NCBI GenBank assembly: GCA_029210695.1
Contig: JARGFH010000018.1
Span: 1-62,820 of the forward strand
Source of the DNA: Acidimicrobiia bacterium
GTDB lineage: Bacteria > Actinomycetota > Acidimicrobiia > Spongiisociales > JAHEDJ01
Direction: 5' to 3'
Length of the DNA: 62,820 nucleotides
In this document: piece by piece, positions 4,206 through 58,293 of the stretch
Layout: every line of letters starts with the position of its first letter
How positions within the stretch are numbered: position 1 is the stretch's first letter
Position numbers and translations under genes: made by a program
Notes under the pieces: model-generated
What the model was told of the DNA's origin: nothing
What the model saw: the letters and a program-made list of their open reading frames with translations, nothing else
The model's database searches: none

Positions 4206-4588
4206 GTGCTCCGTCGCCGTCGATCGACACCGGGCGGGGTTCGGCCACGGTCGAATTCGCGCTGGTGATCCCGGTCGTTCTGCTGGTACTGGTTGCCCTG
4301 GTCGAGGTCGCGGTGGTGGCGCGCGTTCAGTTGGAACTACTCGGCGCAGCCAGACAAGGGGCACGGGTCGCCGCCACCAACCCCGACCCGGCGAACGCCG
4401 TCGATGCGGTTCACGGAGCACTGAGCGAAGGAGCGGTCCAACAGGTCATCGTGACTGTTGAGCGGCCGGCGGTGGTGGGCAGGGAGGCAGTAGTCGAGTT
4501 GGCGATGACCCACCGCCTGGCGAGCGCACTGTTCGGAGGTGTGCCGGTCAACCTGTCTGCACGATCGGTCATGCGGGTCGAGCGATGA
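4202..4588 (+). CDS. tadE: TadE-like pseudopilin
   Basis: 128 aa, TTG start overlapping the previous stop as TTGA. A short hydrophilic N-terminus leads into GSATVEFALVIPVVLLVLVA, the TadE signature (SATVEFAL), then a transmembrane helix and a periplasmic or extracellular beta-rich domain. TadE-type pseudopilins are minor subunits needed for Flp pilus biogenesis. It is followed by another pseudopilin-like gene with ATGA overlap. Confidence 0.88.
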   Translation: MSAPSPSIDTGRGSATVEFALVIPVVLLVLVALVEVAVVARVQLELLGAARQGARVAATNPDPANAVDAVHGALSEGAVQQVIVTVERPAVVGREAVVELAMTHRLASALFGGVPVNLSARSVMRVER

Positions 4589-4992
4589 TCCGGGAAGACG
4601 GGTCTGCGACGGTTGTGGCCGTGTTCGTCGTCGGCATTCTGGCCGTCCTAACTGCCGCCCTCGGCGGGCTGGCGCAGATCCTGGTGGCCGGCGACATGGC
4701 GCAAACGGCGGCCGATGCCGCCGCTCTCGCCGCCGCTCCCGTGACGTTCAGGCCGTTCGGGGCGACTGGTTCCGCCGTCGAGGAAGCCGGCCGGTTCGCC
4801 GGGGCCAACGGTGGACGGCTCATCCGGTGCGCCGGTTGCGAACCGGATCCGTCGTGGAATAGGCGTGTGGTGGAAGTCGAGGTCCTGGTCGAGGTCGACG
4901 TTCTCGGATTCGGCAGGTCGGTCGTCTCAGCCTCTGCCGCCGCAGAGTTCGTTCCCGCGCAGTTACTCGGTCTCCCTGTGTTCGACGGCTGA
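4585..4992 (+). CDS. TadE-like/TadF-position pseudopilin (Rv3654c-like)
   Basis: 135 aa. The N-terminus REDGSATVVAVFVVGILAVL is the 'helicase/secretion neighbourhood TadE-like' pattern, followed by AGDMAQTAADAAALAAAP, a run shared with TadG/Rv3654c-type proteins. It has one membrane helix, a surface domain with two cysteines (CAGC), and no stop before the P-ATPase region. As the last gene of the Tad operon it is likely a minor pilin. Confidence 0.8.
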   Translation: MIREDGSATVVAVFVVGILAVLTAALGGLAQILVAGDMAQTAADAAALAAAPVTFRPFGATGSAVEEAGRFAGANGGRLIRCAGCEPDPSWNRRVVEVEVLVEVDVLGFGRSVVSASAAAEFVPAQLLGLPVFDG

Positions 4993-5022: not shown

Positions 5023-7668
5023 ATGACCGATTGGCATGCTCGAGACGCCGACGACGTCGTTGCCGGGTTGGAGACCGACTCCGAGCGCGGGTTGTCCGGC
5101 GTGGAATCCTCCCGGCGACTGGCGGAGACCGGTCCGAATGAACTCGGGGGCAGCCGGGGACCCGGCCGCTGGCGGATCCTGGTCTCGCAGTTCACCGACA
5201 TGCTCATCTTCGTCTTGCTCGTCGCCGCCGTCGTCAGTGGTTTCCTGCTGGGGGAGTGGATCGACGCGGGTGTGATCCTTGCCATCGTGGTCCTGAATGC
5301 TGTGATCGGGTACACGCAGGAAGTCCGTGCCGAGGATGCGCTCGCCCGGCTCAAGGAAATGGCGGCGCCAACCGCGCTCGTCATAAGGGACGGGGAGGAG
5401 GTGGACGTTCCCGCCGCGGAGGTTGTGCCCGGCGATCTGCTCGTTCTCGAGGCGGGCGACAAGGTGGCGGCAGATGCCCGGTTGGTGACCGCTGTGCATC
5501 TCCAGGCTGAGGAAGCCGCCCTCACCGGCGAGAGCCTTCCCGTTTCCAAGAACCTCAAGCCGTCTCCTCTCGATGCGTCGACCGGCGATCGGCGGTCCAT
5601 GGTGTTTGCCGGGACCGTGATAGCCGCCGGGCGCGGCCGGGCTGTCATCACAGCTACCGGGCCCTCCACGGAGATGGGGAAGATCGCCGAGATGCTCGAA
5701 CCTGAAGAGCAGCCTTCTCCGCTCTCGCTCGAGCTTGCCGAAGTCGGACGCCGGATCGCCTGGCTCACTTTGGGGATCGCCGTCATCGTCTTCATCCTCG
5801 GCCTGGCCCGCGACCGGTCGGCGGAGAGCGTTCAGACGATGTTCCTCATCGCCGTGGCGCTTGCCGTTGCCGCCATTCCCGAGGGACTGCCGGCTGTTGT
5901 CACCGTGACGCTGGCGAGGGGAGTGCAAGCCATGGCGAAGAACAACGCCATCGTTCGGCGGCTTCCTGCCGTCGAAGCGCTCGGAGCCGCTTCGGTCATC
6001 TGCACCGACAAGACGGGCACGCTGACGCGCAACGAGATGCGCGTGCAGGTCATCGATTTCGCTGACCTCGTCGCTCTGCCGGCGGACGTGGAGGGTACCG
6101 ATGGGAGGGTGTGGCGTTTCGCCCAGATTGCCGCGCTGTGCAGTGATGCTCGCCGGGTCACCGACGGTTATCAGGGTGACCCGACTGAGATAGCGGTTCT
6201 CCGATCCATCGATCCGACGATTCTCAAGGTAGACGACGTGCGGGCGGCCAGTCCTCGCCTGGACGAAGTTGCCTTCGACTCATCCCGCAAGATGATGACC
6301 ACCCTGCATCCGGCCGGTGAGCGATTTCTCGTAGCGGTCAAGGGAGCGCCCGAGGTCGTGCTGGGGCGCTGCGCGTTTTTCGAGCATGTCGGGGGGCCGG
6401 TCCCGATGGATGAACAGAGGCGCGCTTCTGCAGTGGAAACGGCCGACGGCTTCGCCGCCCGCGGGCTGCGCACGCTCGGTTTCGCCTACAGCATCATCGA
6501 TGCGCGTCCTGCCGATCTTGCCGGCGTCGAACGAGATCTCGTGTTCGTGGCGCTGGCCGGGATGAGTGATGAGCTTCGACCCGAGACCCGGCGTGCGATA
6601 GAGGACGCCAACGCCGCTGGAGTCCGGGTCGTGATGGTGACGGGAGATCACCTCGTTACCGCCAGGGCGATTGCCGCCGACCTCGGGCTGCTCGGAGAAC
6701 GCTCGGCTATGCCGGGAACCGAGTTGCGAGCGATGGAGCAGGAAGAACTGAATGCGATCGTCGAGGATGTGGCGGTCTACGCCCGTGTTGACCCGGCCGA
6801 CAAGGTGAAGATCGTCAAAGCATGGAAATCCACCGGTGGGATCGTTGCCATGACCGGTGATGGTGTGAACGATGCACCGGCCCTGCAGGCTGCGGACATC
6901 GGGGTAGCCATGGGGTCGGGCACCGACGTTGCGAAGGAAGCTGCAGACATGGTCCTGGCAGACGACAACTTCGCCACCATTCTTCGTGCGGTTTCCGAGG
7001 GGCGGGTGATCTTCTCGAACCTGAAGAAGGTCGTTTACTTCTTGCTCAGTGCCAACGCCTCAGAAGTGCTGGTGATGTTCCTCGGTTTTCTCTTCTTCGG
7101 GGCGCTGGGCGAGCCGTTGCTGGCCACCCAGTTGTTGTGGATCAATCTCGTTACGGATGGATTGCCGGCACTGGCCCTGGGCATCGACACGCCGGTGCCC
7201 GGGCTCATGCACCAGTCGCCGGACGAGCGGCGCGAGATCCTCAGTGTGCCCCACCAGCTGCGGATCCTCTGGCAGGGTGCCTTCCTGGCGGCCGGCGCGC
7301 TCGGTGCGTTGATCTGGGCGCACTACCTGCGAGAGGCCGAGTGGGAGTATGTCCGAACCATGGTCTTCACCACCCTGGTCACCGCCCAGCTTGCGCACAT
7401 CTACAACATTCGGGCGCAGGGCACGACGGTGTGGAAGATCGGCTTTGGCGGCAATCGAGTGCTGACGTGGGGCGTGATCGGGTCTTTGATGCTTCACGTC
7501 CTGGTCGTCTATACGCCGCTCGGCAATCGGTTGTTCGACACGGTGCCTATCGAGTGGATCGATTGGCCGGCGATCGTCGCGTTCACGGTGCTACCTTTTC
7601 TGGGCGTCGACGCGGTCAAGCGCAGGATCGTACGCCGCCACCCCGCCTGGGAGACGGTCGGGGACTGA
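5023..7668 (+). CDS. P-type cation ATPase, Ca2+ type (PMA1/PacL-like)
   Basis: 881 aa, a full-length P2-type pump. Visible motifs: actuator TGES, phosphorylation site DKTGTLT (about residue 330), hinge MTGDGVNDAP. The M4 motif AIPEGLP, M5 SANASEV and M6 NLVTDGLPALALG carry the Glu, Asn/Glu and Asn/Asp ligands used by SERCA-type calcium pumps, so Ca2+ export is the likely activity (inference from site residues). It is monocistronic. The convergent downstream LCP gene is separated from it by palindromic repeats. Confidence 0.9.
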   Translation: MTDWHARDADDVVAGLETDSERGLSGVESSRRLAETGPNELGGSRGPGRWRILVSQFTDMLIFVLLVAAVVSGFLLGEWIDAGVILAIVVLNAVIGYTQEVRAEDALARLKEMAAPTALVIRDGEEVDVPAAEVVPGDLLVLEAGDKVAADARLVTAVHLQAEEAALTGESLPVSKNLKPSPLDASTGDRRSMVFAGTVIAAGRGRAVITATGPSTEMGKIAEMLEPEEQPSPLSLELAEVGRRIAWLTLGIAVIVFILGLARDRSAESVQTMFLIAVALAVAAIPEGLPAVVTVTLARGVQAMAKNNAIVRRLPAVEALGAASVICTDKTGTLTRNEMRVQVIDFADLVALPADVEGTDGRVWRFAQIAALCSDARRVTDGYQGDPTEIAVLRSIDPTILKVDDVRAASPRLDEVAFDSSRKMMTTLHPAGERFLVAVKGAPEVVLGRCAFFEHVGGPVPMDEQRRASAVETADGFAARGLRTLGFAYSIIDARPADLAGVERDLVFVALAGMSDELRPETRRAIEDANAAGVRVVMVTGDHLVTARAIAADLGLLGERSAMPGTELRAMEQEELNAIVEDVAVYARVDPADKVKIVKAWKSTGGIVAMTGDGVNDAPALQAADIGVAMGSGTDVAKEAADMVLADDNFATILRAVSEGRVIFSNLKKVVYFLLSANASEVLVMFLGFLFFGALGEPLLATQLLWINLVTDGLPALALGIDTPVPGLMHQSPDERREILSVPHQLRILWQGAFLAAGALGALIWAHYLREAEWEYVRTMVFTTLVTAQLAHIYNIRAQGTTVWKIGFGGNRVLTWGVIGSLMLHVLVVYTPLGNRLFDTVPIEWIDWPAIVAFTVLPFLGVDAVKRRIVRRHPAWETVGD

Positions 7669-7783
7669 GACTTTCTCGGCAATGCAACGGAGTGTCACGG
7701 TTCACAGCATTGCTGAGAAAACTGAGGCGAGTTTCTGCGCAATACAACGACGTGTGGCGGTTCACTGCATTGCTGAGAAAACT
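7669..7783. repeat. Two tandem palindromic repeats, 60-nt period
   Basis: Two copies of an imperfect hairpin lie in the gap between convergent genes. The right arms GCATTGCTGAGAAAACT (7707-7723 and 7767-7783) are identical, and the 8 nt before them differ at one base. Each left arm (CTTTCTCGGCAATGC at 7671; GTTTCTGCGCAATAC at 7731) is roughly complementary to the right arm. The second copy ends on the stop codon of the LCP gene. It could be a bidirectional terminator or a REP/MITE-like mobile palindrome. A 13-nt piece (GAGTTTCTGCGCA) also occurs at 99-111. Confidence 0.75.
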
Positions 7784-8987
7784 AGGGAGTCTCGACGAGC
7801 CCGTTCGTGAGGTCTTCGAAGATCGTGAACGCCTCTTCGTCGAGGCGCACGACGGATGCCGCCCCCGCCGTTCCAACGGTGCCGGGCACGACGATGTTCG
7901 TCAGGGTGAGTGGATTCAGCTCGTAGGCAGAGGCCGCCAGCGTCAAGAGGTCCTCAGGCGACAGATCCGTCCACGTGTATTCGGTCAGAAGTTCGAGCAG
8001 ATGGGGAAGCTCCTCGATGCTCCGCCGTTGCGTCTCAAACAGGGCGGCCTTCATGATCAACCCGTGGTGGAGCTGTCGGGTCAGGTCGCCGCCGGCGATC
8101 GTCCGGTTGCGGGCAAAGGCGAGCGCCCCGGTCCCATCGATGTGCTGTTCGCCTGCATTGAAGTACGCCTTGGACTTCGGTTCGGACATCGCGAACGGAA
8201 TGTCGATCTCAAATCCGCCGAAGGCGTCTACCAGACCCACGAACCCTTTGAACCCGGTGAGGATGTAGCCCTCGAAGTCGAGCCCGGTGAGGATCTCGGC
8301 GGTCTCGACCACGACCTCCGGTCCCCGGGACGCCATCACGTTCGTGAACTTGGCGTTGCCGCCGTAGGAGGCCGCGACCCACGAGTCGCGCGGGATCCCC
8401 ACGATGGCACCGTCCCCGAGTCCCGGAACCGTCGAGACGATGTGAAGGCTGTCGGCCCGGAAGCGCAGGGGGTTCTCGCCCGGCCGCGCGTCGGAACCAA
8501 TGACGAACGCCAGGCGCGGCGTCTTCCCGTACACCGGCGGGGCATCGAACCTACTCAGCCGGGCGCCCACGATTCGCCATTCGCCGTCGTCGACTGCGAG
8601 TACCACATCGTCTCCGGCGGTCACGACGGCGATGGGGGTCTCGAAGATCGTCCCGAGGTAGGCCGTCCCCTCGACCTCGATCGAACGTTGATCGGTGTGA
8701 ACTCCTTCGAGTCCGGCGGCGAGGCTGTCGGCAATAGATCCAGGTGGGGGAGAACTCGGATCCAGAATCCAGGAGTAAAGGGCATCGATAGCAACAGCCA
8801 GTTCGGCAGGTGCGCCCTCGAGAACGACTGTGGCTTCGAGTTCGACGAGCGTCGTGGTAGCTGCCATCGTCGGCGTGGAGGTCGAGGCAATCGCGGTTGA
8901 ACTGGTGGTGGTGCTGGTTTCGGAGCCGCCGCATGCTGAGAGCAAGAGGGCCACGGCCAGCATCACACTGACACGGTGAGGATTCAT
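7782..8987 (-). CDS. LytR-CpsA-Psr (LCP) family lipoprotein
   Basis: 401 aa from ATG 8987, chosen because it places a clean lipoprotein signal at the start, with lipobox LLLSAC (Cys19) and then a Ser/Thr-rich linker. ATG 9008 and 9020 are alternatives. The LCP core is seen in VIGSDARPGENPLRFRADSL (Asp/Arg pyrophosphate-binding motif), IVGIPRDSWV, GFVGLVDAFGGFEID and ALAFARNRT. LCP enzymes attach polymers such as teichoic acids or arabinogalactan to peptidoglycan using polyprenyl-phosphate donors. A lipid anchor instead of the usual N-terminal helix is less common. Confidence 0.85.
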   Translation of the reverse strand: MNPHRVSVMLAVALLLSACGGSETSTTTSSTAIASTSTPTMAATTTLVELEATVVLEGAPAELAVAIDALYSWILDPSSPPPGSIADSLAAGLEGVHTDQRSIEVEGTAYLGTIFETPIAVVTAGDDVVLAVDDGEWRIVGARLSRFDAPPVYGKTPRLAFVIGSDARPGENPLRFRADSLHIVSTVPGLGDGAIVGIPRDSWVAASYGGNAKFTNVMASRGPEVVVETAEILTGLDFEGYILTGFKGFVGLVDAFGGFEIDIPFAMSEPKSKAYFNAGEQHIDGTGALAFARNRTIAGGDLTRQLHHGLIMKAALFETQRRSIEELPHLLELLTEYTWTDLSPEDLLTLAASAYELNPLTLTNIVVPGTVGTAGAASVVRLDEEAFTIFEDLTNGLVETP

Positions 8988-17514: not shown

Positions 17515-17623
17515 GGGTTGTGGGTTCTGAGTTCTGGGTTTACTGGTGGTGGCGGGGTCGAATTGTTGGTGCCGGCACTTGACGGTCCGGTGACCTCCAA
17601 CCTAGAACCTATGACCCGGAACT
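17515..17623. repeat. Opposed heptad arrays (head-to-head), topA-MFS gap
   Basis: Left array: four 7-nt units (GGTTGTG, GGTTCTG, AGTTCTG, GGTTTAC; 17516-17543). After about 52 nt comes an array in the opposite orientation (TCCAACC, TAGAACC, TATGACC, CGGAACT; 17596-17623), whose complements read GGTTGGA, GGTTCTA, GGTCATA and AGTTCCG. The two could pair into a long imperfect hairpin. No coding feature explains it. Confidence 0.8.
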
Positions 17624-17668: not shown

Positions 17669-17734
17669 GGTACTACTGGGTACTCGGTACTCGGTACTCG
17701 GTACCAGCTACCAGCTACCAGGTACTAGGTACCC
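17669..17734. repeat. Heptad array GGTACNN, eight contiguous units
   Basis: From 17679 eight consecutive 7-nt units in strict phase: GGTACTC three times, GGTACCA, GCTACCA twice, GGTACTA, GGTACCC. A further GGTACTA lies at 17669, offset by 3 nt. This is the clearest member of the family in the window. It lies in the gap upstream of the MFS gene and is translated only if an improbable upstream start is assumed. Confidence 0.9.
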
Positions 17735-22307: not shown

Positions 22308-22539
22308 GCGGACATGCGATCAGGCAGTCGAGAAGATCTACTACTTCCTCGATGGTGAGATCACGTGGTATCGGCGGTTGCGCATCAATTGGCACCTCCG
22401 GTCGTGCCCGCCGTGCGAAGGAGCCTTTCAATTCGAGAGCAAGTTGCGATCGGTTGTGCGGGAGAAGAGCGCAGAGGAGATTCCCGACGAGCTGATTGAA
22501 CGGCTCCGGCGCGTCTTGCGTGATGAGATGAACAGTTGA
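22300..22539 (+). CDS. Zinc-binding anti-sigma factor, RsrA/RshA type
   Basis: 79 aa. ZAS motif with Cys6 and His32-x3-Cys36-x2-Cys39 (HLRSCPPC), the metal/thiol switch of RsrA that releases SigR on disulfide stress. It is translationally coupled to the sigma gene. Such pairs usually control the thioredoxin and mycothiol systems, fitting an actinobacterial host. The stop codon lies within a heptad array. Confidence 0.92.
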
Positions 22540-22569
22540 CCCGCGACCCGCGACCCGCGACTAGTGTCC
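22535..22569. repeat. Heptad array (CGCGACC units)
   Basis: Units GTTGACC, CGCGACC, CGCGACC, CGCGACT and AGTGTCC follow in 7-nt phase; their complements fit GGTNNNN. The array contains the anti-sigma stop codon and ends 5 nt before the next ATG. Confidence 0.75.
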
Positions 22570-35696: not shown

Positions 35697-35731
35697 GGCC
35701 TATGGCCTATGGCCCATGGCCTATGACCCAC
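35697..35731. repeat. Heptad array downstream of lysS
   Basis: GGCCTAT, GGCCTAT, GGCCCAT, GGCCTAT, GACCCAC in strict 7-nt phase, starting 2 nt after the lysS stop. Read on the other strand the units are GGCCATA/GGTCATA types, i.e. opposite to the array before lysS. Confidence 0.85.
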
Positions 35732-44921: not shown

Positions 44922-47417
44922 TTGTTCGAACGCTTTACTGATCGGGCCCGAAGAGTTGTGGTGCTTGCACAGGAGGAGGCGCGCCTCCTCAATCACAACT
45001 ACATCGGCACCGAGCACATCTTGCTTGGCCTCATCCATGAAGGTGAGGGCGTTGCGGCCCGCGCCCTGGAGAGTCTGGGCATCAACCTCGACTCCGTCCG
45101 CCAGCAGGTGGTCGAGATCATCGGGCAGGGTCAGCAGGCGCCGAGCGGGCACATTCCGTTCACGCCCCGCGCTAAGAAGGTTCTCGAGCTGAGTCTGCGC
45201 GAGGCGCTTCAACTCGGCCACAACTACATAGGTACAGAGCACATTCTGCTGGGACTCATCCGGGAGGGTGAGGGGGTTGCCGCTCAGGTTCTACAGAAAC
45301 TCGGCGCAGATCTCCCGAAGGTTCGTCAAACCGTCATTCAGCTGCTGTCCGGAGTTCAGGGCGATGATCAGCCGTCTGGCCCCTCATCCGCCAAGGGCCG
45401 GGCCGAGCAACCGACGGGTGGATCGACGATCCTCGATCAGTTCGGAAGGAATCTCACCCAGTCTGCTCGTGAGCAGAAGCTCGATCCCGTGATCGGCCGC
45501 CAGACCGAGATCGAGCGAGTCATGCAGATTCTGTCCAGGCGGACCAAAAACAACCCGGTCTTGGTGGGAGAGCCCGGAGTTGGCAAAACGGCCATCGTGG
45601 AAGGCCTCGCCCAGCGTATCGTCGCCGGCGATGTCCCGGATACCTTGACGAACAAGCAGCTCTACACGCTCGACCTGGGCTCGCTCGTGGCAGGCTCGCG
45701 CTATCGGGGTGACTTCGAAGAGCGTCTCAAGAAGGTGCTGAAGGAGATTCGGACCCGGGGCGACATCGTCCTGTTCATCGACGAGATTCACACCCTGGTT
45801 GGAGCGGGCGCCGCAGAAGGCGCCATCGACGCGGCGAGCATTCTGAAGCCGATGCTGGCTCGCGGCGAACTGCAGACCGTCGGCGCCACCACGCTCGAGG
45901 AGTACCGCAAGTACCTGGAGAAGGACTCTGCACTCGAGCGACGATTCCAGCCGGTTAAGGTCGAGGAACCAACGGTGGCCGATACCATTCAGATTCTGCA
46001 CGGCCTTCGGGATCGGTATGAAGCGCACCACAAGGTGCGATTCACCGACCAGGCGCTCGTGAATGCCGCCAACCTGGCGGATCGCTATCTCGCCGATCGG
46101 TTCCTCCCGGACAAAGCCATAGACCTCATCGACGAGGCCGGCAGCCGCATGCGAATCCAGCGAAAAGGCAGCATGCCTGAGCTCGAGGATCTCGACGATC
46201 GTATCTTCGAAGTGCGGTCTTCCAAGTTGGAGGCCGTCCAGTCGCAGCAGTACGAACGGGCTGCCCAGCTCCGCGATCAGGAACGGAGCCTCACTTCAGA
46301 TCGTATGGAACATGAGCGCGAAGCGAGCGAGTCCGGCATCCAATCAACCTGGGTGATCGACGAAGAAGAAATCGCCGAGGTGCTGGCGCAATGGACGGGT
46401 ATCCCGGTGCACCGTCTGACCGAGGAGGAAACCGCCCGGCTGGTCCGCATGGAAGACGAGCTCCACAAGCGAATCATTGGTCAGCACGACGCCATCGGCG
46501 CGGTGAGCCGGGCCATCCGCAGGACCCGGGCCGGGCTCAAGGATCCGAAGCGTCCGGCCGGGTCGTTCATCTTCCTCGGGCCATCCGGCGTCGGCAAGAC
46601 CGAGACTGCCAAAGCGCTGGCCGAGTTCCTGTTCGGTGATGAGGCCGCCCTCATCCAACTCGACATGTCGGAGTACATGGAGAAGCACACTGTGAGCCGG
46701 TTGGTCGGTTCGCCTCCCGGGTACGTTGGCTACGATGAAGGTGGGCAGCTCACCGAAGCGGTCCGGCGCAAGCCATTTTCTGTCGTGCTCTTCGACGAGA
46801 TCGAGAAAGCCCACCCGGATGTCTTCAACACACTGCTCCAGATTCTCGAGGACGGCCGGCTGACCGACGCCCAGGGTCGGACGGTCGACTTCAAGAACAC
46901 GGTCATCATCATGACCTCCAACCTGGGTACCTCCGAGCTGCGGAAGAAGGCGGTCGGGTTCCACAAGGGAAACGAAGAGGTCACATACGAGTACATGAAG
47001 GAGCGCGTGACCGAGGCGCTCAAGAAGAACTTCCGTCCGGAGTTCCTCAACCGCATCGACGAAGTGATCGTGTTCCACGAGCTTCGCAAGGATGAGGTCA
47101 AGGAGATCGTCGATCTCATGCTGGCGAGAGTCCATCAACAGTTGAAGTCACAGAGCCTTCAACTGGCGTTGTCGGATGCCGCCAAAGGTTTCCTCGCAGA
47201 CAAGGGATACGATCCGGAGCTTGGTGCCCGGCCGTTGCGCCGAGCCATACAGCGGCGCCTCGAAGATGCCCTGTCGGAACGGGTCCTGCTCGGCTCCTTC
47301 AAGGCCGGGACCACCATCGTCGTGGACGTCGACACCGAAACCGACGAGCTCACCTTTGAGGAAGTCGAAGCTCCCGATCAACCGCCTGTGGTGCTGGCCG
47401 AGTCACAAGACTCCTAA
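44922..47417 (+). CDS. clpC: ATP-dependent Clp protease ATPase subunit ClpC
   Basis: 831 aa. Two Clp_N repeats (each with [13 protein letters not shown]), AAA1 with GEPGVGKT and [18 protein letters not shown], a UVR-like middle segment ([15 protein letters not shown]), AAA2 with GPSGVGKTE and [12 protein letters not shown], and the C-terminal D2 small domain. It unfolds substrates for ClpP. The start is TTG 44922 ([10 protein letters not shown]), the standard ClpC N-terminus, with AGGAGG 10 nt upstream. Confidence 0.97.
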
Positions 47418-47419
47418 GA

Positions 47420-47523
47420 GGTTCTAGGTTCGAGGTTCTAGGTCAGTTGCCTGTCACCTTTCTTCGCCAATCGGTGCTTCCAGCACGAAAGTACCTAGAA
47501 CTCATGACCTAGTACCCGGAGAC
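47420..47523. repeat. Opposed heptad arrays downstream of clpC
   Basis: Left: GGTTCTA, GGTTCGA, GGTTCTA, GGTCAGT (47420-47447). Right, opposite orientation after about 41 nt: AAGTACC, TAGAACT, CATGACC, TAGTACC, CGGAGAC (47489-47523). All are in 7-nt phase. Pairing of the arms would make a large imperfect hairpin directly after the clpC stop. Confidence 0.85.
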
Positions 47524-48340: not shown

Positions 48341-49510
48341 ATGCAATCCAAGACATGGATGAAGATCGTGGCGTTGCTCGCGGTCTTCGCACTTGTATTG
48401 GCCGCCTGCGGCGACAGCACGACAGATACGACTGCTGCTCCCGATACGACGGATACGACTGCTGCCCCCGACACCACGGACACGACGATGGCGCCCGACA
48501 CCACGGATACCACGATGGCGCCCGACACCACGGACACGACCGCCGCCGCGATGGTCGATTACAAGGCCTGCGAGGTCACCGATACCGGCGGTGTCGACGA
48601 CCGCAGCTTCAACCAGAGCGCCTGGGAAGGCGCCCTGAAGGCCGAAGCGGAACTCGGTGTAGAGGTGAAGGTTCTCGAATCTCAGTCTGCAGCAGATTTC
48701 GAGCCGAACATCAACTCTCTGATCGCCGACGACTGCGATATGGTCGTCACCGTCGGGTTCCTGCTCGGCGACGCCACGCTCGCCGCCGCCCAGGCCAATC
48801 CGGATGTTGCGTTCTCGATCGTTGACTACGCGTACGATCCGGTTGTCGACAACATTGCCGCCCACGTCTACGCAACCGCAGACGGTGCATTCTTGGCGGG
48901 CTACGTTGCCGCAGCCATGACCCAGACCGGGACGATTGCCACCTACGGTGGTGTCGACATCGGCGGACCCGTGACCGACTTCATGGACGGTTTCGTTTGG
49001 GGTGCTCGTTACTACAACCAGGAGAAGGGCACCGATGTCCAGGTGCTCGGCTGGAATCCCGATACCAAGGAAGGTCTGTTCACCGGTAACTTCGAGAGCA
49101 TCGAGGACGCCAGGACGCTCAGCGTGAGTTTGGCGGACGAAGGTGCCGACATCTTCCTGCCCGTCGGCGGACAGATCGGGCAAGGCTCGGCGGCGCTGGC
49201 TCAGGAACGTGGGGATATGTGGGTGATCGGTGTGGACTCCGACTGGTTCCTGTCGGTTCCACAGTTCTCCGACGTCATCCTGACGTCCGTGCTGAAGAAG
49301 ATCGATGTGTCGGTCTACGACACCATCAAGTCGGCCGTCGACGGCATGTTTGCCGGCGGCACCGTCGTCAACACGATGGCGACCGGTGCCATCGACATCG
49401 CTCCGTTCCATGATGCCGACTCGTTGGTTCCCGCCGAATTGAAGGCTGAAGTCGAGGCGATCAAGGCGGCCATCATCGATGGTTCGCTCGACATCGTTAT
49501 CTCCGGCTAA
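48341..49510 (+). CDS. BMP-family nucleoside-binding lipoprotein of ABC importer
   Basis: 389 aa. Lipoprotein signal with lipobox VLAAC (Cys23), then a Thr/Asp-rich linker of four 9-residue repeats. The periplasmic-binding domain begins KACEVTDTGGVDDRSFNQSA, the PnrA/BmpA purine-nucleoside-binding signature (DDxSFNQ), and continues GFLLGDA, AFLAGYVAAAM and GVDSDW. It is followed by a hairpin and then the ATPase and two permeases, so it forms a complete importer. AGGAAAGGA lies 8 nt before ATG 48341. Confidence 0.93.
   Translation: MQSKTWMKIVALLAVFALVLAACGDSTTDTTAAPDTTDTTAAPDTTDTTMAPDTTDTTMAPDTTDTTAAAMVDYKACEVTDTGGVDDRSFNQSAWEGALKAEAELGVEVKVLESQSAADFEPNINSLIADDCDMVVTVGFLLGDATLAAAQANPDVAFSIVDYAYDPVVDNIAAHVYATADGAFLAGYVAAAMTQTGTIATYGGVDIGGPVTDFMDGFVWGARYYNQEKGTDVQVLGWNPDTKEGLFTGNFESIEDARTLSVSLADEGADIFLPVGGQIGQGSAALAQERGDMWVIGVDSDWFLSVPQFSDVILTSVLKKIDVSVYDTIKSAVDGMFAGGTVVNTMATGAIDIAPFHDADSLVPAELKAEVEAIKAAIIDGSLDIVISG
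48425..48532 (+). repeat. 27-nt tandem repeat coding for the lipoprotein linker
   Basis: Four in-frame copies of a 27-nt unit encode DTTAAPDTT or DTTMAPDTT. Copies differ at several third positions. Slippage could vary linker length between strains. Confidence 0.85.
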
Positions 49511-53641: not shown

Positions 53642-53723
53642 GGTAATCGGATATGGGTTGTAGGTTCTTCCGGCGAGAACACCTGGCGGTTTGGGCACGA
53701 CCCACTACCTAGAACCTAGAACT
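53642..53723. repeat. Opposed heptad arrays downstream of the ABC operon
   Basis: Left: GGTAATC, GGATATG, GGTTGTA, GGTTCTT (53642-53669). Right, opposite orientation after 26 nt: CACGACC, CACTACC, TAGAACC, TAGAACT (53696-53723). Exact 7-nt phase. It is followed at once by a perfect hairpin. Confidence 0.85.
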
Positions 53724-57426: not shown

Positions 57427-58293
57427 ATGGCCACGAAGAAACCCGCATCCGCAAAGAAACCTGCCGCCCCCAAGACGGCGACCGCTAAGAAGTCTGCGGC
57501 GAAGAAGCCTGCTGCCAAGGCGGCTGCGGCGAAGAAACCTGCTGCCAAGAAGCCTGCTGCGAAGACGGCTGCGGCGAAGAAACCTGCTGCCAAGAAGCCT
57601 GCTGCCAAGACGGCTGCAGCGAAGAAACCTGCTGCGAAGAAACCCGCGGCGAGGAAGCCGGCCGCCAAGGCCGAGCTGAGGCCGGCGGTGCTGAAGAAGC
57701 CCATTGCGAAGCGACCTGTTGCCGGCCAGCCTGATGCCACGGCCGATGCGGCGAGCGCTCCGGCCGCCAAACCTGCCCCTCGTCGCAAGAGGCCGTCGCC
57801 ATTCGGCCTGGGCGACAAGGTTGTGCACCCTCACCACGGTGCCGCGATCATCACCAAGAAGGTCAAGCAGGTGGTGGCGGGGGAGAAGCGTGACTACTTC
57901 GTACTCGAGATTGCCACCGACCAACTCACGGTTTTCGTGCCGGTCGACAACATCGAAGACACCATCCGCCCCGTCATCTCCAAGGCTGCCGCAGGGCGGG
58001 TGTTCAAGCTCTTCAAGGAGGAGCCCCAGGAAGCGGGCAGCAACTGGTCTCGCTGGTACAAAGTACTCAACGAGAAGATGACCAGTGGTGACATCTATCA
58101 GGTTGCCGAGGTCGTTCGTGACCTCACGTTCGCTCAGCAGACGAAGGGCATTTCGCCTGCCCTCAAACGCATGTTGAGCAAAGCCAGGCTAACCCTCACC
58201 AGCGAGCTTCAGTTCGCTTTGGCAATCGACGATGAAGAGGCAACGAAGAAACTCGATAGGGCACTACCCAAGGTCGAGATCGAAGAGAGCTAA
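57427..58293 (+). CDS. carD: CarD/CdnL-family RNA polymerase-binding protein with histone-H1-like N-terminal tail
   Basis: 288 aa, nearly twice normal CarD. Residues 1 to about 125 are Lys/Ala/Pro repeats (AAAKKPAAKKPAAKT units), like the tails of histone H1/HU-type proteins. The CarD domain begins FGLGDKVVHPHHGAAIITKK (RNAP beta-binding Tudor-like fold) and ends in the helical DNA-binding part with NWSRWYKVLNEKM and DIYQVAEVVRDL. The tail probably binds DNA nonspecifically. ATG 57427 is preferred over GTG 57421. TACACT at 57396 is a plausible -10. Confidence 0.92.
   Translation: MATKKPASAKKPAAPKTATAKKSAAKKPAAKAAAAKKPAAKKPAAKTAAAKKPAAKKPAAKTAAAKKPAAKKPAARKPAAKAELRPAVLKKPIAKRPVAGQPDATADAASAPAAKPAPRRKRPSPFGLGDKVVHPHHGAAIITKKVKQVVAGEKRDYFVLEIATDQLTVFVPVDNIEDTIRPVISKAAAGRVFKLFKEEPQEAGSNWSRWYKVLNEKMTSGDIYQVAEVVRDLTFAQQTKGISPALKRMLSKARLTLTSELQFALAIDDEEATKKLDRALPKVEIEES
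57523..57657 (+). repeat. 45-nt tandem repeat in the carD tail
   Basis: Three in-frame 45-nt copies each encode the 15-residue unit AAAKKPAAKKPAAKT, the last ending RK. Purely coding low-complexity repeat, prone to copy-number change. Confidence 0.9.

What the first reader, a model, noticed from the sequence alone, without database searches (positions are those of the whole stretch)
47420..47523. Opposed heptad arrays that can fold into one long hairpin after clpC
GGTTNNN units on the left face NNNAACY/NNNACC units on the right, separated by about 41 nt. The same head-to-head plan occurs at 17516-17623 (52 nt apart) and 53642-53723 (26 nt apart), each time just after a long gene or operon. 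The pairing is imperfect but spans four units per arm. This could be a processed RNA, an mRNA 3' stabiliser or a protein-binding array.
Basis: partly seen in the sequence, partly recalled or inferred. Interest (0 to 1): 0.75.

Follow-up and report, generated by a model that had tools for sequence, protein, structure and literature searches.

The report
Mirror-image seven-base repeat arrays
Between its genes this bacterium carries about a hundred runs of seven-base repeats, some in facing mirror-image pairs; the same facing pairs bracket the small four-helix "23S rRNA intervening sequence protein" gene in very different bacteria, which suggests that an unexplained kind of bacterial repeat and a poorly understood selfish element are parts of one thing.

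Summary
The three opposed heptad arrays are real: they are the only such pairs in the window, and shuffled sequence gives none. They belong to a genome-wide set of intergenic arrays in which 7 nt is the only enriched period, four units is the mode, and the G-rich strand points inward from the gene boundary. Such arrays, including facing pairs and a four-unit mode, are already reported in Xanthomonas.

Fine pairing is not conserved. Arms of one GGTTCTA element match no better than arms of different elements, and relatives have at the clpC site nine one-way units, three degenerate units or none.

The new result: PF05635 (23S rRNA intervening-sequence protein, IVP) genes are bracketed by opposed heptad arrays. 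Of 31 loci in the window's phylum, 21 have arrays on both sides. The heptad differs between loci, but the two arms match each other as inverted repeats (p 5e-5). Cyanobacterial and Azospirillum plasmids repeat this. The published Coxiella IVS has the same plan: heptamers, a 28-bp terminal stem and the S23p ORF in the loop.

Best reading: the window loci are ORF-less, IVS-like stems. Their origin and any RNase III processing are inferred, not shown.

The parts
47420..47447 (+). left arm after clpC: GGTTCTA GGTTCGA GGTTCTA GGTCAGT
47448..47488 (.). spacer of 41 nt, no ORF and no IVP remnant
47489..47516 (-). right arm: four heptads on the minus strand (GGTACTA GGTCATG AGTTCTA GGTACTT)
17516..17543 (+). 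left arm of the second pair: GGTTGTG GGTTCTG AGTTCTG and degenerate GGTTTAC
17596..17623 (-). right arm of the second pair (AGTTCCG GGTCATA GGTTCTA GGTTGGA on the minus strand)
   Evidence: both arms conserved in G001
17674..17733 (+). adjacent array that changes heptad family in register (GGTACTC, GGTACCA, GCTACCA, GGTACTA)
53642..53669 (+). left arm of the third pair: GGTAATC GGATATG GGTTGTA GGTTCTT
53696..53723 (-). right arm of the third pair (AGTTCTA GGTTCTA GGTAGTG GGTCGTG on the minus strand)
   Evidence: unit numbers differ in G001
22538..22561 (-). single array of another heptad family, GACCCGC x 3.4
35697..35728 (-). single array of another heptad family, GGCCTAT x about 4.5
44922..47417 (+). 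clpC-like Clp ATPase gene upstream of the array

Best explanation
The opposed arrays are the paired ends of an IVS-like repeat element that has no gene in its loop here. The full form, found elsewhere in this genome and in distant bacteria, is: heptad array, IVP open reading frame (PF05635, four-helix bundle), inverted heptad array. [quoted passage not shown] Shown here: the arrays, their 7-nt period, the four-unit mode, the inward orientation, the bracketing of IVP genes by arms matched to each other and free to differ between loci, exchange of the segment between the arrays at one orthologous site, and one case with arms kept and IVP decayed. Inferred: that array-only pairs such as those in the window derive from, or are multiplied along with, such cassettes; that the matched stem is recognised by shape rather than by sequence; that arrays lengthen and shorten by heptad slippage; and that in a transcript the stem is cut by RNase III, so that at clpC it would trim the 3' end of the mRNA. 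What moves the element is unknown.
For: Period 7 alone is enriched (93 segments against 0 shuffled; other periods 1-9 apart from the multiple 14). Four-unit mode, 59 of 88 arrays. Inward G-rich strand 104:41, p 2e-7. Inward against outward pairs 17:3. All four full-length IVP genes found in G000, G001 and G003 lie between opposed arrays of four different heptad families. In the phylum 25/31 IVP loci have an array upstream, 23/31 downstream, 21/31 both; control windows 20/177. Own arms match as inverted repeats 16.1 against 4.3 +/- 1.2 permuted, p 5e-5. Plasmids: 9 of 12 with both arms, 21.6 against 7.7, p 5e-5. Around IVP genes 63 of 88 flanks have a period-7 segment, shuffled 0. No other called gene in G000/G001 has matched inverted arrays on both sides, 0 of 1865. 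At one orthologous site G000, G001 and G003 carry different IVP genes (47-49% identity of the G000 protein to the other two) with alignable DNA (93%, 83%) ending within or close to the arrays. Decayed IVP between intact arms in G000, intact IVP in G001. Coxiella IVS: three GACAGAT plus GACAGAA before the S23p ORF, 28-bp terminal stem, RNase III excision (PMC4990558).
Against: The three window spacers (41, 52, 26 nt) hold no ORF and no IVP remnant. Most arrays are single: about 29% have an inverted partner in their region against 15% by chance. Within the GGTTCTA family the arms do not covary. For array-only pairs the inverted match is only moderately significant (p 0.014). G002 has arrays but no detectable IVP gene. 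At clpC the pair is found in one species of four. No transcript, processing or mobility data.
Confidence: 0.55

Rival explanations
1. Neutral heptad microsatellites. DNA polymerase slippage makes 7-nt arrays wherever selection is weak; opposed pairs are two independent arrays at the two boundaries of an intergenic region, and IVP genes merely tend to lie among them.
For: Arrays gain and lose units between relatives; most are single; the inward orientation holds for arrays of all families; arms of one GGTTCTA element do not covary. Heptamer excess is widely reported and slippage has been proposed (PMC4692102, PMC4679880).
Against: Unit number is peaked at four rather than falling off. Arms around IVP genes match locus by locus, and no other gene in the sample shows this. 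Neutral slippage does not explain matched inverted partners.
Confidence: 0.25
2. Bidirectional terminator or mRNA 3'-end stabiliser, kept for its hairpin.
For: Enriched between convergent genes (17% of such regions against 6.5% of divergent ones), mostly within 15 nt of a gene boundary; a hairpin can form.
Against: Also present between divergent genes, as at 17.5 kb; pairing no better than between random arms; no compensatory changes; second arm missing at clpC in relatives; compact hairpins equally common with and without arrays; no run of T after the stem.
Confidence: 0.12
3. Binding array for a DNA- or RNA-binding protein that recognises heptads, with pairs giving convergent sites.
For: Strong polarity and a preferred number of four units; Geobacter elements of four tandem heptanucleotides were proposed as regulatory sites (PMC2700814).
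Against: Several different heptad sequences share the layout in one genome, and orthologous sites change from one family to another, which does not suit a sequence-specific protein.
Confidence: 0.06

Closest known systems
Convergent GGGAATC heptamer repeats of Xanthomonas and GGGGA(C/T)T repeats of Nostoc (PMC4692102)
   Same: 7-nt unit, intergenic, dispersed, four-unit mode, 70-75 close convergent pairs per Xanthomonas genome, G-rich strand on the coding strand just after stop codons, rare between divergent genes, length variation between relatives
   Different: Units here are mostly unable to form G-quadruplexes, so the quadruplex reading does not explain the four-unit mode; several heptad families share one genome. 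X. campestris encodes an IVP protein (XCC0516, PDB 2GSC), which that paper does not connect with the repeats in the parts I read
IVS element of Coxiella burnetii 23S rRNA (PMC4990558)
   Same: heptameric direct repeats at the end of the element, terminal inverted repeats forming a 28-bp stem; at IVP-bearing loci also the S23p/IVP ORF in the loop
   Different: intergenic instead of in helix 45 of 23S rRNA; the window loci have no ORF; processing not tested
Short tandemly repeated repetitive (STRR) heptanucleotides of cyanobacteria
   Same: 7-nt intergenic tandem repeats; cyanobacterial IVP genes are bracketed by heptad arrays
   Different: other lineage and sequences; the description of STRR as a class is partly from general knowledge
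Four-heptanucleotide elements and paired class 2 sites of Geobacter metallireducens (PMC2700814)
   Same: four tandem heptads in 49 copies; separately, paired sites on opposite strands at variable distance
   Different: described as putative regulatory RNA or protein-binding sites; no link to IVP found in the passages read

Membership tests
Bacterial intergenic heptanucleotide repeats (Xanthomonas/Nostoc/STRR kind) | 7-nt period specifically enriched in intergenic DNA | tested here: met
   93 segments at lag 7, 0 in shuffles, 1-9 at other lags apart from 14
Bacterial intergenic heptanucleotide repeats (Xanthomonas/Nostoc/STRR kind) | about four units per array | tested here: met
   59 of 88 arrays have exactly four
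Bacterial intergenic heptanucleotide repeats (Xanthomonas/Nostoc/STRR kind) | close convergent pairs | tested here: met
   17 inward against 3 outward, 0 in shuffles
Bacterial intergenic heptanucleotide repeats (Xanthomonas/Nostoc/STRR kind) | unit number varies between close relatives at the same site | tested here: met
   clpC site 3, 9, about 3 or 0 units; other sites 4 against 3, 5 against 4, 4 against 8
Bacterial intergenic heptanucleotide repeats (Xanthomonas/Nostoc/STRR kind) | G-quadruplex-forming G tracts (claimed for the Xanthomonas type, not for all) | tested here: not met
   first base A or C in about 20% of units, two G per unit at best
IVS / IVP element | terminal inverted repeats able to form a stem of about 28 bp | tested here: inconclusive
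   arms of about 28 nt, but the stem is imperfect and only modestly better than shuffled sequence, z -0.8 to -2.2
IVS / IVP element | IVP ORF between the arms | tested here: not met
   absent at the window loci; present at L360-L363 and many other loci
IVS / IVP element | located in 23S rRNA | tested here: not met
   intergenic, between protein genes
IVS / IVP element | excised by RNase III | not testable with these tools
   needs RNA data
Intrinsic terminator | compact GC stem followed by a run of T | tested here: not met
   reading; regions with arrays are not short of separate compact hairpins
Rfam families | match at the curated score | tested here: not met
   only two tRNAs in the window
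MITE-type element with fixed terminal repeats | same end sequence in all copies | tested here: not met
   heptad sequence differs between copies and families

The most novel reading that the evidence does not exclude
Heptad arrays and IVP form one widespread minimal mobile element whose ends are defined by being complementary to each other, not by a fixed sequence; IVP (or a polymerase it works with) makes or maintains the heptad arms, and array-only pairs such as those in the window are its non-autonomous copies or footprints. Cyanobacterial STRRs, Xanthomonas convergent heptamers and the 23S rRNA IVS would then be forms of the same element.
Probability: 0.4. Interest if true: 0.9.

Novelty: new variant of a known kind. 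Interest (0 to 1): 0.72.

Why it matters
Heptanucleotide repeats have been noted in bacteria for decades without an accepted reason for the period of seven, the four-unit mode or the facing pairs, and the IVP family has a solved structure but no known function. Finding that IVP genes in several phyla sit between matched heptad arms joins the two problems and gives a direct test: does IVP, or RNase III, act on the heptad stem? It also offers an explanation for a four-unit mode that does not need G-quadruplexes: the 28-bp stem reported for the Coxiella IVS is four heptads long.

Tried and rejected
Considered and dropped: six-frame stop-codon arrays (the GGTTCTA unit gives TAG in every frame, but other heptad families have no stops and the unit junction without a stop, G|G, is not depleted); terminator substitution; sequence-specific protein binding (family exchange); arms copied from each other (no covariation); conserved inner or outer flanks (weak, up to 0.5 bit). 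The G-first rule seen for array-only elements is not significant at IVP loci (19 of 28, purine-first 13 of 28). My first IVP profile mixed strands because loci of minus matches are not turned round; corrected, and the arm-matching results do not depend on orientation.

Full report
What is there. A unit profile learned from the genome's own intergenic DNA reads R-G-T-T-C-T-R. With it, the window holds exactly three intergenic regions with inward-facing arrays of three or more units per arm, and they are the three named; across 1.63 Mb of this genome and 0.59 Mb of relative G001 there are 17 inward and 3 outward pairs, against none in ten dinucleotide shuffles. One statement needs correction: the 17.5-kb pair lies between divergent topA and an MFS gene, not after a gene.

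A genome-wide class. In the intergenic DNA of G000 and G001, 7 nt is the only enriched tandem period apart from its multiple 14 (93 segments against 0 shuffled). Several heptad families share the genome: GGTTCTA, AGTCGCG/GGTCGCG, GGCAATT, GGCARTA, GGTACYN and others; arrays can change family without leaving the register, as at window 17674-17733. Of 88 well-scored GGTTCTA arrays 59 have exactly four units. The G-rich strand points inward from the nearest gene boundary in 104 of 145 arrays (p 2e-7), for the main family and the others alike, and array-free regions show no such skew; regions between convergent genes carry arrays 2.6 times as often as those between divergent genes.

Is the hairpin conserved? 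Not in fine detail. Arms of one element are no more complementary to each other than to arms of other elements. In three elements shared with G001, changes break pairs about as often in the true register as in shifted registers. At clpC, G001 has nine one-way units, G003 about three degenerate one-way units and G002 none. The opposed state does persist at several other sites: 6 of 8 in G001, counting the region with a third array, and at one site also in G002, with a single recognised arm in G003. Folding of the window loci is modest (z -0.8 to -2.2). At a coarser level there is coupling: adjacent arrays in one region resemble each other as inverted and not as direct repeats (p 0.014), and two sites with opposed GGTTCTA arrays in G000 carry opposed arrays of the AGTCGCG kind in G002 (read from the aligned sequences).

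The lead outside the window. At L226:3608-4005 the arms flank a decayed small ORF that is intact in G001 and matches PF05635, 23S rRNA-intervening sequence protein. A search of G000-G003 found four full-length and one partial copy; all four full-length genes lie between opposed heptad arrays, each of another family: GGTTCTA, GCAATTC, GGCAATT, GGCTCTA/GGCCATA. These control windows are mostly coding, so the contrast in frequency alone is generous; the matching of the arms is the stronger fact: 16.1 against 4.3 +/- 1.2 when arms are re-dealt between loci, p 5e-5, direct similarity 3.8 against 2.0. As a second control, none of 1865 called genes in G000 and G001 has matched inverted arrays on both sides. 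An independent set, 12 plasmid-borne IVP genes from cyanobacteria and Azospirillum, has arrays on both sides in 9, matched in 8 of them (mean 21.6 against 7.7, p 5e-5). Two loci found blindly by the heptad pattern, in a Pseudoalteromonas and a Roizmanbacteria genome, also hold an IVP gene between facing arrays.

Movement. At one intergenic site G000, G001 and G003 carry different IVP genes (the G000 protein is 47-49% identical to the other two); the surrounding DNA aligns at 93% and 83% up to or near the arrays and not between them. At L269:12673 a three-array region of G000 is replaced in G001 by a short array of another family. Together these show exchange of the bracketed segment; the route is unknown.

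Comparison with the literature. Convergent heptamer pairs, a four-unit mode and placement after stop codons are reported for Xanthomonas, with quadruplex formation as the suggested reason (PMC4692102); the units here mostly cannot form quadruplexes and still peak at four. X. campestris encodes the IVP protein whose structure is known, XCC0516. The Coxiella 23S IVS has three GACAGAT units and one GACAGAA before its S23p ORF, a 28-bp terminal stem, and is cut by RNase III (PMC4990558). IVP genes in cas loci were noted before, without mention of flanking repeats in the passages read (PMC3936711); two of the plasmid loci here are of that kind. I found no paper in the held library that connects heptad arrays with intergenic IVP genes; subscription journals and preprints are largely missing from it.

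Verdict. The window loci belong to the known kind of bacterial intergenic heptad repeats. The best reading is that they are ORF-less, IVS-like stems. The bracketing of IVP genes is shown; the descent of the window loci from such cassettes, and any RNA processing at clpC, are inferred. They are not filed as IVS members, because the ORF and the rRNA location were tested and not met.

Noticed in passing
L226 about 4500-4800 and 7430-7640: A dispersed repeat of about 65 nt with many further copies in G002 and G003, on both strands; looks REP-like (of the kind gcgttctccccccacg...gtggggggag).
   Followed up: no
L395 and L402 (cyanobacterial plasmids): IVP cassettes with heptad arms lie between cas6 and cas4; L396 lies between the two ribonucleotide reductase genes.
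   Followed up: partly
L360, about 1440-1490 (G001:C45): An extra inner stem-loop (CAGCCTCCTGAG...CTCAGGAGGCTG) between the left heptad arm and the IVP start.
   Followed up: no
L227:5690-6004: The own-genome IVP gene was not called by a codon-usage gene finder, which hints at foreign codon usage.
   Followed up: no
window 7672-7790: Two imperfect copies of a 60-nt tandem repeat just after a long ORF.
   Followed up: no
window 48418-48547 and 57436-57669: 27-nt and 15/30/45-nt repeats within coding sequence; the second (AAGAAGCCTGCTGCG) would encode a lysine/alanine/proline-rich stretch.
   Followed up: no
L175, after position 2500 (G007, another family of the order): A different pair of heptad arrays (CGTACTT-like and GGTACCA-like) lies after clpC there too.
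   Followed up: no
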